From assembly GCA_020086605.1 (NCBI GenBank), contig JACBWW010000046.1:5542159-5606158 (forward strand): a stretch of 64,000 nucleotides of DNA, written 5' to 3'. Position 1 is the stretch's first letter. Each line of letters starts with the position of its first letter. This document shows, one piece after another, positions 48,001 through 54,000 of the stretch. A program made the position numbers and the translations under genes. The notes below the pieces were generated by a model. It did no database searches, was not told where the DNA came from, and saw only the letters and a list, made by a program, of their open reading frames with translations. The stretch comes from Lanius collurio. Its lineage: Eukaryota; Chordata; Aves; Passeriformes; Laniidae.

Positions 48001-51000
48001 ATACAGCTTTGCTCAAAGGAGAATCTCTCTTATGTGCTCAAAACTACGACTTTCAGAGAAGTTCAGACATCATTAAAATCCAGATGCTACGTGACCCCAT
48101 CACTAAAATACAATTCCTTGAAGATACACATCTCCTACTTCAAGTGATGTGAACCTGTAGGGTAATACCACCAAGACATGATGATCTGCCCTACCACATC
48201 TGTCCTTCAAGACTGATACCTCAAAACACTAAAGCTCCTCTCATCTTTATAGCACCCTGAACCCACAGAATAAAACAGGGAGAGACTGTAACCTGCTGTC
48301 AAACACATCTGCCCTGAATGGTCTTCACATTTAATTTACAACTTGGTGGGTGCCCTAGCCCTCTCCTCAAGCCCACTGCCAGCTTACCCTGTGTCCCTGG
48401 CATCTGATGGTTGGGTGTTTCCAACTTCTCCTATCAGCTTGAACTAAGGAAAACACAAAAAGTTGTTTGACTCCTCCCTGACCAGGTGATGCTTTATCAT
48501 GGATATCACCCATCCTCTGAATCCCCTGAGATTCCCTAGAATATCCTCTTTAACTACCCATATCCCATTACCGCATTGATTTTTAAAATCAAGACAATAT
48601 TCTCAACATAACTTCAGATAAAGTATTCCAAGGAAGTTTCTGAGAGCTTCCCTCAGAAGTTCCTAAATGCTAGATCTGAAAAGAGTCCAATACACAACAT
48701 GGCCTGAGAAAGGGGAAATCAAGAGGAAACAATCTACATTTTAAAAAGCACCTAGGAATATGATATTGTAAACTGAGTAGCAACAACCCCCTAATTTGCA
48801 TTTTAAAAATCCATGAGCAGTACAAAGCACCGCAGAAGGAAGCCTGGCAAAATGCTGTACTACATCATCTGTTAATAGGGAGATTCAGCTTCAGAGAGAA
48901 ATCTAAAAATTCTCCTTTGATCATGAATAGAAGGAAAAAGGATCAAGATGTCTTGCTGTTTAAAAAAAGGCTTGGCAGGGAAGAGGTTGAGATATCACTG
49001 ATCCATATTCCATCAGCTTGAAATATACATGGAATATATACCCCTTTCCAAAAGCCAGGTTAAAGCAAAGTAATGAAGAATTATACGCTTTAAAGGTTGT
49101 GAAAAAACAAGTAAAAAGAGGATATATATAATAAATACTGCACTGTTGACATCCGTCCTACATTACCTTAAACAACAGAGTCAGAGAGCAAGAAACAAAG
49201 GAGGCTGAGTTTGTATGAGGAAGATAAAAAACAAAACTACTGGCACAGTATCTTCAAGTAGGACTGGACATAAAACTAAGCCAAAGCATAGTGTTGAAGT
49301 GGCTGAGACATGCTGCTACATAAATCTGAAATCACACATACGCAGGTAATGTTTTACAGTGCAACTGGGATAAAAGAGAAACTAAAAATTCAAGGAACAA
49401 AAATCAATCTTATCAGATTTTTAGAAGAGAAATGGAATCCAACGGGGAAAGAAAAGAGTACTTCAGCATTCTAGAGTAAAATTTCCTTAAACTATGACTG
49501 AAACCAAATAAACCATATGAGCCAATATCATTATTTTAAATTGGAAAGAAACATCAAAAAAACCCCAAAACAGCTTTATTGGCCCATGTGGATGCATCTC
49601 TAAGCAATAACAAGAACCACAGATTTGCATAAACCCCATTGCAAGCAAATGCAAAATCAGGTAAACTAATAATGAAATAGTAGTAGTTTTTATAGTTTTA
49701 TAGTAGAAGATGCTAAATTAACAACTGAAATGCTGAATAGAATTTCTGGGTTATCTTTCTCAATGGCAGAAGAATAAGTTACATGAAACAGATCTAAACT
49801 AAAGTAAGAGTGGAGAGGAAAAAATTAAATTACCCCTTCGGTTCTGCCACTAACACATTTTCCAAAAGCCCCAGACACTTCAAGGAACTGATGACTTTCA
49901 TCCAAAAGTTATTTGGTATGAGGTACTTGAGATTACTTCTTTAATTCAGCACATTTAACACAGAAATACAATAATAATAATAGTCCATACTAACCACACA
50001 ATTTAAATGCATTTTCAAGCAACTGGCAAACACTGGCAAAGACTGAAAACAGAGGATGCACTTGGCTTATTTGCACAATTATAAAGCTTAAGACCACTGG
50101 TCTGATTAATTTGTCGAGCAGCTGACCAAGCCTCTCTGTGTAACACCTTGCCTAGATAGGAAGGAGAAGAACAACACCACAGGACAGCTCCTCAGACACT
50201 CACCACGTAACTTTTACATTTTTTCCTCTTCCATTAGCCATGCGGTTTTCCATAAGAAAACCCTGGTGTGATGCTTCTGCACAAACCCTCATTAGACTAT
50301 AATGGGACAATGCTAGTTCACTGCCTGTGTGGAGGTGCCTTCCCCTGAAATCCCTGGAGGAGGGACCCTGCAGGGTACGGATCTGCTTCTGTCCCTGTCC
50401 CCATGTCACGTGTGCCCCATATCTGTTCCTGATTGGGTGGTTTGGGTGTGCCCAGGGGGCCCGGGAGTGAGAGAGCAGGGTCTGATGACTGAGTTGGCCT
50501 GGGAACTCCATCCATGGCGGCTGGAGGAATAAAATAATCCCTGAACATCTACAGAAATATCGCTTCATCTTTCCTTCCAAGTCCATCGCTGTCTTATATA
50601 TGTTATAAGGATTCCCCGTTACAACAAATGGTGGAGATATGTGGACATTCGATCCCTGAAAACGATTTCTAAAGGTCCGGAGTACACCGATGAGAATTGT
50701 GAGTAATTGAACTTTCTTATTGTCTTGTTTTTGGCTGTACTTTCTGACCAGATGGAGAAATCAGAGGAGCTGTGGCTATCTGAGCCACAGAGAAAAATGT
50801 ACTTGGAAGTGAAAGAAATTCTAGCGAAACAAAATACAAAACAGGACCCAGGACATTTAGAACTCTTCTTTAACTGACTTTTCAATAATTTCTTTTATGT
50901 CACTCGAGACTTAATTTTTGATGTTGGTTTTCCTGTGACTAGAGGGGACAATTTTTGGAAAGAAATCGATGAGTTGATAATGATTCAGTCAAAAAGTGGA

Positions 51001-54000
51001 ATGGTAGCAGAATTGATCCTAGCTTCTTTTGCAATTGAAGATGCTCTCATAAAGCATATACCCGGTCCCAGTAACACAGAGGTGCCTGTGGCTGAGGTGC
51101 CTGCGGTGGAGGGGCCCAGCCCCCCTAAAAGCACAAGCCGTAGAGCAGACCCCATCCCTGTATCGGAGTGCAATCCCAAACAACAGCGGGTGAGAGAGGG
51201 ACAACGAAGACACTGGATGTGAGAGTGCATTCCTAGGGGTCTCTGAGGTATTCTTACAGTGAATAAAGAAGGACAGACAGTAGAAATAGCTGCTGAAAAA
51301 CGCAAAGCGTGAGCCGTGAAAGCAGAGGCACGAGATGCGAGAGCAGCGGCGAGGGTGGCAGCGGCATGACCCGGCAATGGCTGCCCCGCGCCGTGTGGCA
51401 AGCAACAGTCCGAGCCCAAGAGCGAGAAAGGCAGTGGCGTTAGTGGCAGTCGCTATGACGACCACAGTGAGCCACGCCAAACCGAGCCGGAGCGGCGTGG
51501 GGGTGAGAAGAGAACCGTGCTAGCACCCAGCAGCAACACATCTGTAGCTGACAGCAGCAGCAGCAGCGGCAGCCCCGGCGTTATGAAGCCGCGCACACGC
51601 AAACGCCTCACAGGGCACAGCTGCGCAGCCGCGCAAACGCCCAGAAAGCGTGGAGCTGCAGTCTCGTGGAAGTCCAGAGGAGAAGCGAGCACAGCACCAA
51701 ACGGTGGTGCAGAGGTGGCCGAAGGCGGAGCAGCCGGCAGGGTCAGCGTGCACCAGCACGGCCCGACCAGACCCGCACGGTCCCACACGTGATCCCGAGG
51801 AGTCCAGACCCCACAACAGGAACGTGCTGGCAGCCCCGGCAGTCCCGGCTGCGGCAGCTCCAACGCGAGAGCAAGAAAAACTGAAGGTGAAAGCAAGAAC
51901 AAAAAAACTTGGAAAAATGAAAAGGTTATCGCAGCTAGGGTTTTGGGAACTGTAAAGTGGTACAATGTAAAGAAAAATTACGGTTTCTTATTGAAAAATG
52001 ATACTGGATAAAGTAGTTTTTTGGCCATAAATCTGCTATTGTAAAAAAATAACCCCAAAAGTGATGTTCCAAGCTTAGAAGAAGGAGAAAGAGTAGCATT
52101 TAAAATTGTGCAAGGAAGGAAGGGCCCACAGGCCGCATGTCTTACAGGCCCTGGAGCTGTCCCTGTCAAAGGCAGTAGATATGCTAGACAATACCCCCAT
52201 AATCCCTATCCTTTCCCTTATCCCACCTTCCCCTTTTATCCCATGCCCCTTTATCTCCCACATATGCCCAGCCCAAATTTCCCTTTCTGGCTCCCCTCAC
52301 AAAACCAGGCTTTTCCATTCACCATGAACCCCTTTGCAATGCTGATGGGGGGGATGAAAAGGAGGGAGGGAAGAAATTAACTGTCATTTTCTAAGATTCC
52401 AACAGGTACAAAAAAGAAAATCCCTTCCTCAGTTTCCATCTGAAGCATGCTCAAATCCTGTCTCCCTTATGATGCTCCAAAGAAAATCTGTTTGGACATC
52501 TGGGGACTCAAGATAGTGGCTTCCTTTCCTTTGAAAATGTTTTGTTGTTTATCCAACTGTTTCCAATGTTCTCCATTTAAAAAGAAAGGGTGTATTGTGG
52601 AGGTACCTCTCCCCTGAAATCCCGGGGGGAGGGACCCTGCAGGGTACGGGTCTGTCCCTGTCCCTGTCCCCATGTCACGTGTGCCCCATACCTGTTCCTG
52701 ATTGGTTGGTTTGGGGGGACCAGGCCCAGGAAGAGATGAGGGTCCCATGACTGGGGTCTGCTGGGAACTCCAGCCATGCGGCTGGAGGAATAAATCATCT
52801 CTGAACATCTACAGAAATATCACTTCATCTTTCCTTCCAAGTTCATTGCTATCTTATACTTGTCATAAGGATTCCCAGCACTACAACATGCCTGGAAAAA
52901 CTGCTTTTGTGGGAACACCACTTAAACATTTGATGCCACACCCAGAGCATTCTCCAGGAGACAGACACCAAGCAGGCTGAGTCAGCAAAGCCAGGGAAGA
53001 CTTTGACACCACCAAAACCAAAATTACCCTAAAATGCAACATTACAGAAACGTTTACATCAGACTGTGTTACTGCAAACACCGTGAGGGCAAACCTGTGC
53101 TGGGACCAATTCTACAGAAAATGCAATAGGGAACAAACACTGCTTGAAGAATCCAAAGATGAATCACAATGTTACCTAACGAGAATGCCAAAAAGTTGCA
53201 GATGTTTTTCCTGACAGTCTCTGGTTTTCACAGCACTTTGGAAAAATACTCAGTGCCCTATAGATTTCAGTGTCTCTAAATAAGTCTCAGAGAAATATCA
53301 TCCTGCCTCAACTTACTGAGCAGTGTGAGAAGCATAGATTCCATGTCTGATCTTTAGAATAACATGAAAAGGATGCTAAGAGAGGAAATGTCCTTATTTC
53401 CACTGTGGAAACATAATTCACTGAGGCTTTGAGCACAGCTACAACACAAATTATAAACATTTTATTTTCTGAACCCACAGTTCTCAAGCTTTAAACATTA
53501 AGAACAAAAGTCACACGGCTGTTTTTGTTAAGTCTCTGTCTTACCACTATGTAACAGAAGAATGAAATTACATTCTTAGTTTATATTCAACTATTCCTCA
53601 TCAGCTGAATTTGTTTTAAACTCAACACATGAATCAGGGCAGTCCCACCTGCAGGGAAACTAGAGAGGCCAGTTTTTTCATTTTTCAACAATTATTTTCA
53701 GTACATTGGAAGAAATTCCAGCAAACAGTTCCAAAACAATAGTTCAACAATACTCCATTCTTCAAAAATAATAAATGCAATTGTATCCAACTGAACAGTA
53801 ATTCAACTAACAGTTAGCTGTAATAATTTGAAAGCACTGGCAACAATTCCCATAACCTATTAGGTACACAAAAACTTAGATGGCTTGCCTAAAATTACCA
53901 ATTAAGCTATTATCCAAAGTTCAGTTATTTTGTTAAATTTGTAACCAGCAGGGCAAAATCTGGATGTCCTTTTTCCAGGTAATGGGAACACAGCACAAAA

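What the first reader, a model, noticed from the sequence alone, without database searches (positions are those of the whole stretch)
50328..52888. Endogenous retrovirus carrying a host Y-box cold-shock domain
A provirus-like element with two LTRs, a primer-binding start, a purine tract and a perfect 6-bp target duplication encodes, in one reading frame, a matrix-like gag segment, an Arg/Ala/Ser-rich linker and a Y-box-type cold-shock domain. The usual pol and env are missing. This is the layout of a transducing retrovirus (gag fused to a host gene). Oncogene capture is known for avian retroviruses, but I know of no described capture of a YBX-type nucleic-acid-binding domain. A packaged RNA-binding Gag fusion could have helped RNA incorporation or translation control (inference).
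Basis: partly seen in the sequence, partly recalled or inferred. Interest (0 to 1): 0.92.

Follow-up and report, generated by a model that had tools for sequence, protein, structure and literature searches.

The report
Retrovirus-like element carrying Y-box domain
An old, decayed retrovirus-like element in what looks like a bird genome carries a piece of a host RNA-binding gene (a Y-box cold-shock domain) between its long terminal repeats, which would be a new kind of host gene picked up by a retrovirus if sister copies confirm it.

Summary
The element is real: LTRs 50328-50626 and 52596-52888 (88.5% identical over 288 sites), TG...CA ends, a perfect 6-bp duplication, a TGG-type primer site and a purine tract. 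Inside lies a Y-box-type cold-shock domain (CSD), 51916-52185, recognised in two separate pieces (E 1.6e-8, 4.3e-11). It is decayed: two stops, and its middle reads in another frame. The upstream segment is a coding frame, but nothing identified it as gag. "One reading frame" is partly right: both ends share a frame, but a 150-base junction has stops in all three. A nested YBX retrocopy is unlikely: no poly(A) or own duplication, and the CSD differs at 32 of 77 residues where LTR age predicts about 11. That suggests it evolved inside the element before this insertion. My reading: a helper-dependent element that captured host Y-box mRNA, whose product bound the element's own RNA. Both LTRs carry CTGATTGG, a Y-box core. 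The decisive test, sister copies, could not be run: the genome search did not complete in all 19 tries.

The parts
50322..50327 (+). target-site duplication TGCCTG, left copy
   Evidence: sequence
50328..50626 (+). 5' LTR, TG...CA, 299 bp; Y-box core CTGATTGG at 50429, AATAAA at 50528
50629..50646 (+). primer-binding-site-like stretch beginning TGGTGGAG, two bases after the LTR; tRNA not identified by any search
   Evidence: sequence
50752..51219 (+). open coding frame in gag position (one stop at 50875); gag identity not shown
51220..51369 (+). junction with stops in all three + frames
51370..51915 (+). Arg/Ala/Ser-rich, GC-rich linker (51331-51860: 67% GC, CpG o/e 0.83), one stop at 51790; no Pfam match in 51370-51789
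51916..52185 (+). Y-box-type cold-shock domain; stops 52009 and 52042 bound an RNP2 stretch that reads in another frame
52186..52380 (+). Pro/aromatic-rich tail of 64 codons and stop, in frame with the CSD; not matched by the YBX chains seen
52579..52590 (+). purine tract AAAAAGAAAGGG, 5 bases before the 3' LTR
   Evidence: sequence
52596..52888 (+). 3' LTR, 293 bp; Y-box core CTGATTGG at 52698, AATAAA at 52789
52889..52894 (+). target-site duplication TGCCTG, right copy
   Evidence: sequence

Best explanation
This is an old copy, the only one seen, of a replication-defective, helper-dependent retrovirus-like LTR element that carries a cold-shock domain captured from a processed mRNA of a host Y-box gene (YBX1/2/3 type). 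Shown: LTRs, duplication, CSD, coding frames on both sides of a closed junction. Inferred: capture by copy-choice between co-packaged viral and host RNA; residence in the element long enough for the CSD to diverge far beyond this copy's own decay; movement by proteins from a helper virus. Most likely role (inferred): the CSD product bound the element's own RNA and helped its stability, translation or packaging, standing in for the missing nucleocapsid; it may also have acted on the Y-box core in the element's LTR. This copy is now broken.
For: LTR pair, TG...CA ends and 6-bp duplication. CSD matches YBX1/YBX2 chains in two separate pieces, E 1.6e-8 and 4.3e-11; the next-best places in the 64-kb window score E 0.09 or worse. 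No intron-sized gap inside the CSD (270 bases), as expected for an mRNA source. CSD plus tail frame: 2 stops against 9 and 10 in the other + frames, P 0.008; upstream frame P 0.0003. 32 of 77 residues differ from the YBX chains, against about 11 expected from LTR divergence, Poisson P 1.5e-7; the differences lean conservative, mean BLOSUM 0.41 against -0.22 for random one-step changes, P 0.009. No nested-retrocopy signs. Precedent for capture: KIT-ligand and nectin3 in crocodilian ERVs (PMC4299795, passages). Precedent for use: YB-1 supports HIV, MLV and MMTV production and binds the RSV promoter, as told in PMC6040738 (passages).
Against: One locus only; no sister copy seen. Gag identity unshown and no capsid, pol or env match, so packaging rests on an assumed helper. 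The junction 51220-51369 is closed in all + frames. The CSD is broken here. The conservative-change signal fails for the larger piece alone (P 0.08 and 0.11) and is weak by count of positive changes (both pieces P 0.04 and 0.08; single pieces 0.13 to 0.23). The excess divergence could come from a divergent source gene, from fast retroviral replication without selection, or from LTR gene conversion that makes the insertion look young. None of the reference chains is known to be from a bird. Eight gap events between the LTRs would by the same reckoning predict some 20 indels in the coding region, yet the frame is largely kept outside the junction and the RNP2 stretch; I do not explain that.
Confidence: 0.58

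Rival explanations
1. One-off LTR-mediated chimeric retroposition: retroviral machinery picked up a Y-box mRNA once, by template switching, and inserted it here with LTRs; it never replicated further and the CSD never served the element.
For: Only one locus is in hand. A closed junction and an unidentified upstream frame fit a chimera with no designed fusion.
Against: A fresh copy should differ from YBX by about 11 residues from decay, not 32. The CSD continues in frame into a 64-codon tail unlike the YBX chains.
Confidence: 0.22
2. A YBX retrocopy inserted later by LINE machinery into an ordinary defective provirus.
For: The CSD is intronless; a short A-rich stretch (longest run 6) lies at 52408-52420.
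Against: The best repeat beside that stretch is 8 bases; in 300 mononucleotide shuffles 102 gave 8 and 48 gave longer. A 9-base repeat (52266 with 51114) has no A-run beside it and was not tested against a null. The YBX matches stop at residue 47-48 of the second piece. A later insertion must be younger than the provirus yet is far more diverged.
Confidence: 0.07
3. The element is a capture, but with two separate genes: a short upstream ORF ending near 51219 and a linker-CSD-tail ORF, perhaps made from a spliced RNA, rather than a Gag-CSD fusion. (A variant of the best explanation, so the odds overlap.)
For: 51220-51369 has 4, 4 and 3 stops in the three + frames, no better than chance (P 0.83), while both sides are open.
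Against: Upstream frame and CSD share one frame; the junction could be a once-open Arg-rich stretch that has decayed (inference).
Confidence: 0.4

Closest known systems
Transducing (gag-onc) alpharetroviruses of birds (recalled)
   Same: Small defective LTR element with host-derived coding sequence in place of viral genes; 6-bp target duplication.
   Different: The captured gene is an RNA/DNA-binding Y-box domain, not an oncogene; gag not identified; the CSD looks long resident in the element; the primer site does not look like the Trp type of those viruses (recalled).
CrocERV29 (KIT-ligand) and CrocERV31 (nectin3) gene captures, PMC4299795 (passages seen)
   Same: Endogenous retroviruses of an archosaur lineage that carry a captured host mRNA.
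   Different: Those have several copies each; KIT-ligand sits between pol and env without loss of a viral domain, nectin3 replaces env. Here one copy, no pol or env match, and a nucleic-acid-binding domain.
YBX1/YBX2/YBX3 Y-box proteins
   Same: CSD with VLGTVKWxNV near its start and VPVKGSRYA at its end, the latter as in the YBX2 chain 7f3i.
   Different: 58% identity over 77 codons; the basic/acidic C-terminal domain is not seen and a Pro/aromatic tail follows; RNP2 stretch broken.
Lin28-type CSD proteins
   Same: Contain a CSD.
   Different: Much weaker match (E 0.066 or worse against 4.3e-11 for YBX2); no CCHC match in the six pieces given to Pfam.

Membership tests
LTR retroelement (non-autonomous provirus) | two LTRs with TG...CA ends and a short target duplication | tested here: met
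   TGCCTG on both sides
LTR retroelement (non-autonomous provirus) | primer-binding site complementary to a host tRNA | tested here: inconclusive
   TGG two bases after the LTR; first 8 bases fit a tRNA-Ala end as recalled; no tRNA in the window and no host tRNA was available
Autonomous retrovirus / ordinary ERV | recognisable gag and pol | tested here: not met
   no Pfam match besides CSD and a sub-cutoff DUF5604 hit (E 0.055 and 0.1) in six + frame pieces; nothing
Transducing retrovirus | host-derived coding sequence between LTRs | tested here: met
   Y-box CSD
Transducing retrovirus | host sequence fused in frame to gag | tested here: inconclusive
   same frame, but junction 51220-51369 closed in all + frames and gag not identified
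Transducing retrovirus | replicating family with several insertions | not tested
   The genome search unanswered in 19 tries; no second copy in the 64-kb window
Y-box protein family | YBX-type CSD | tested here: met
Y-box protein family | C-terminal basic/acidic repeats | tested here: not met
   the solved YBX chains themselves end near there, so the alignments do not test it; the tail's make-up does: 15 Pro, 8 Phe, 5 Tyr, 6 Met in 64 residues
Nested processed pseudogene | poly(A) and own flanking duplication | tested here: not met

The most novel reading that the evidence does not exclude
A lineage of bird retroviral elements replaced the usual nucleocapsid by a captured germ-line Y-box cold-shock domain, kept it under selection through many rounds of replication, and used it both to bind its RNA and to act on a Y-box in its own LTR, a self-regulating loop.
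Probability: 0.15. Interest if true: 0.9.

Novelty: new variant of a known kind. Interest (0 to 1): 0.6.

Why it matters
Known retroviral captures are mostly oncogenes, growth factors and surface proteins (partly recalled; PMC4299795 for KIT-ligand and nectin3). A captured general RNA-binding domain, of a family that retroviruses are reported to use as a host cofactor (PMC6040738), would let one ask directly whether an element can internalise its RNA-handling cofactor, and would date that step by its copies.

Tried and rejected
Nested YBX retrocopy: disfavoured on A-runs, repeats and excess divergence. Chance CSD resemblance: rejected. A 46-base match to the CSD at 3866-3909: 11 residues, E 0.09, nothing more around it, taken as chance. 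Lin28 as source: weaker. Paralogue assignment (YBX1, 2 or 3): not possible; CSD piece 2 differs at 21 of 47 residues from the YBX1 and from the YBX2 chain alike. Fold of the upstream piece: pLDDT 57, so no fold search was made. Relatives: the protein database gave no hit for the upstream piece or CSD piece 2 (one candidate each, so vertebrates seem little represented); viral contigs gave none in five scans; one 21-mer LTR match in a Mycoplasmopsis contig was not examined and is taken as chance. A bacterial promoter/terminator scan of the 3' LTR found nothing and says little about an animal LTR.

Literature: ten searches. Six of them looked for a retroviral or LTR-element link to a cold-shock or Y-box domain and listed 1, 0, 0, 5, 1 and 15 (of 28) papers; judged by titles and abstract starts, none describes such a capture. 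The library holds open-licence papers only. PMC4299795, PMC6040738, PMC4272516 and PMC6001957 were seen as passages only; the rest as listings.
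Full report
What is there. Two LTRs lie at 50328-50626 and 52596-52888. Without gaps they agree at 88.5% of 288 sites (19 transitions, 14 transversions, 8 gap events), Kimura distance 0.125 (the last two bases of the 3' LTR were left out of that count). They begin TGTGGAGG and end ACAACA, and the six bases TGCCTG stand directly outside both. A purine tract (52579-52590) precedes the 3' LTR by 5 bases, not directly, so either the LTR edge or the tract is slightly altered. 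With rates of 1.5e-9 to 3.3e-9 per site per year (recalled), the insertion dates to about 42 to 19 million years.

The cold-shock domain. The frame that starts at 50752 has stops at 50875, 51220, 51244, 51310, 51367, 51790, 52009, 52042 and 52378. I searched stop-free pieces separately. The piece 51859-52008 matches YBX1 chain 6lmr at E 1.6e-8, and 52045-52377 matches YBX2 chain 7f3i and YBX1 chain 6lms at 4.3e-11 and 1.1e-10; Lin28 is far weaker (0.066 or worse). Pfam finds CSD in both halves, each below its cut-off taken alone. In a scan of the whole window with YBX stretches the element gives E 1.2e-11 and 3e-15, and the next-best place 0.34 or worse. Between the two stops the RNP2 stretch reads in another frame (HKSAI where YBX has HQTAI, YBX letters recalled), so this copy is broken there. 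The segment ends VPVKGSRYA, as in the YBX2 chain, then runs on in frame for 64 codons of a tail with 15 Pro, 8 Phe and 5 Tyr, unlike the basic/acidic C-terminal domain described for YB-1 (PMC6040738).

Is it one protein? Resampling in 150-base blocks predicts 23.8 stops in the frame 50752-52377; 8 are seen, and none of 5000 resamples had so few. By parts: 50752-51219 has 1 stop against 13 and 11 in the other frames (P 0.0003); 51916-52377 has 2 against 9 and 10 (P 0.008); the linker 51370-51789 has 0 against 3 and 5 (P 0.08); 51790-51915 says nothing (P 0.78); and the junction 51220-51369 has 4, 4 and 3 (P 0.83). So two coding stretches in one frame are supported, and the link between them is not. 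Of the 8 internal stops 6 are TGA and 2 TAA. The 8 gap events between the LTRs would by simple proportion predict some 20 indels in this 1.6-kb frame; it is kept better than that, which I leave unexplained.

Is the upstream stretch gag? Its position and a start codon 125 bases after the LTR fit gag. But neither of its two pieces has a Pfam match at E up to 1, and the longer piece has two PDB hits at E 0.8-0.9 that mean nothing, no protein relative, no viral-contig relative and a single-sequence model of pLDDT 57. I call it gag-position, not gag.

How did the CSD get there? If it had inserted later than the provirus, or been picked up just before, it should show at most this copy's own decay: about 11 replacements in 77 codons at the LTR rate, taking 0.75 of changes as replacements. 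It shows 32 (Poisson P 1.5e-7, or 6e-6 at a rate of 0.075). The 77 codons are 30 of the first piece, compared with a YBX1 chain, and 47 of the second, compared with a YBX1 and with a YBX2 chain (32 differences either way); the 13 frame-broken codons between them were left out. Zebrafish YB-1 and the YBX1 chain 6lms have the same residues over the 47 positions printed, so host CSDs change slowly. The likeliest reading is a long stay in the element's lineage before this insertion. The differences lean conservative (mean BLOSUM 0.41 against -0.22 for random one-step changes, P 0.009; with the YBX2 chain 0.38, P 0.0125), but the larger piece alone is not significant (0.08 and 0.11), and the count of positive changes is weaker (both pieces 0.04 and 0.08; single pieces 0.13 to 0.23). 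A retrocopy nested in a provirus is disfavoured: the longest A-run after the CSD is 6, and the best repeat beside it is 8 bases, as in shuffles. The linker region is CpG-rich (51331-51860: 67% GC, CpG o/e 0.83) beside a CSD region of 43% and 0.21; it may descend from the GC-rich first exon of a host gene (inference).

Function. YB-1 has been reported to bind the promoters of RSV and other viruses and to support HIV, MLV and MMTV production (PMC6040738, passages). The same paper notes that Y-box binding was later opposed. Both LTRs carry CTGATTGG, the Y-box core (name recalled), at 50429 and 52698; the window has 4 such sites, these two among them, against 3.3 expected. I chose the motif after seeing the sequence and looked for seven motifs, so this is a lead only. 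My mechanism (RNA binding by a CSD in place of a nucleocapsid, helper-supplied particles, possible action on the LTR) is inference.

Limits. The test that matters, other copies with the same LTR, was not possible: 19 identical requests to the genome search did not complete. Five scans of viral contigs and one of genome contigs (one unexamined 21-mer match) gave no relative; these collections hold viruses and prokaryotes. No second copy lies in the window. The host as a bird or other sauropsid is inferred from a CR1-like tail at 36336-36354 (the pattern count as such is not above chance, 7 against 4.6) and a mir-15/16-type pair.

Verdict. A real, decayed proviral element with a host-type Y-box domain between its LTRs; capture most likely; gag fusion and a replicating family open. 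Known retroviruses and ERVs have captured host mRNAs, including KIT-ligand and nectin3 in crocodilians (PMC4299795), so the kind is known and the captured domain is the new part, as far as six literature searches show.

Noticed in passing
window 2667-2748 and 3084-3172, + strand: Two mir-15/16-family hairpins; the second passes the Rfam gathering score (63.1 bits) and the first is just below it (55.6 against 57.3). The mature-arm sequences look like the bird miR-15c/miR-16c pair (recalled).
   Followed up: partly
window 36336-36354, + strand: ATTCTATG repeated as at the 3' end of CR1 elements (recalled), with the microRNAs the main clue that the host is a bird or other sauropsid.
   Followed up: no
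window 50429-50436 and 52698-52705: Y-box core CTGATTGG at LTR position 102-103 of both LTRs, with CACGTG starting 22 bases upstream of it.
   Followed up: partly
window 52186-52377: The Pro/aromatic tail contains YPMPL, which fits the YPXnL late-domain pattern (recalled); likely chance in so Tyr/Pro-rich a tail.
   Followed up: no
window 25664-26544, + strand: Three overlapping long ORFs, by eye rich in Ala, Arg, Gly and Pro, and a GCCAC tandem repeat at 25959-25997, as in a GC-rich island or first exon; composition not measured.
   Followed up: no
window 52591-52595: Five bases TGTAT stand between the purine tract and the 3' LTR, where the tract would normally abut the LTR.
   Followed up: no
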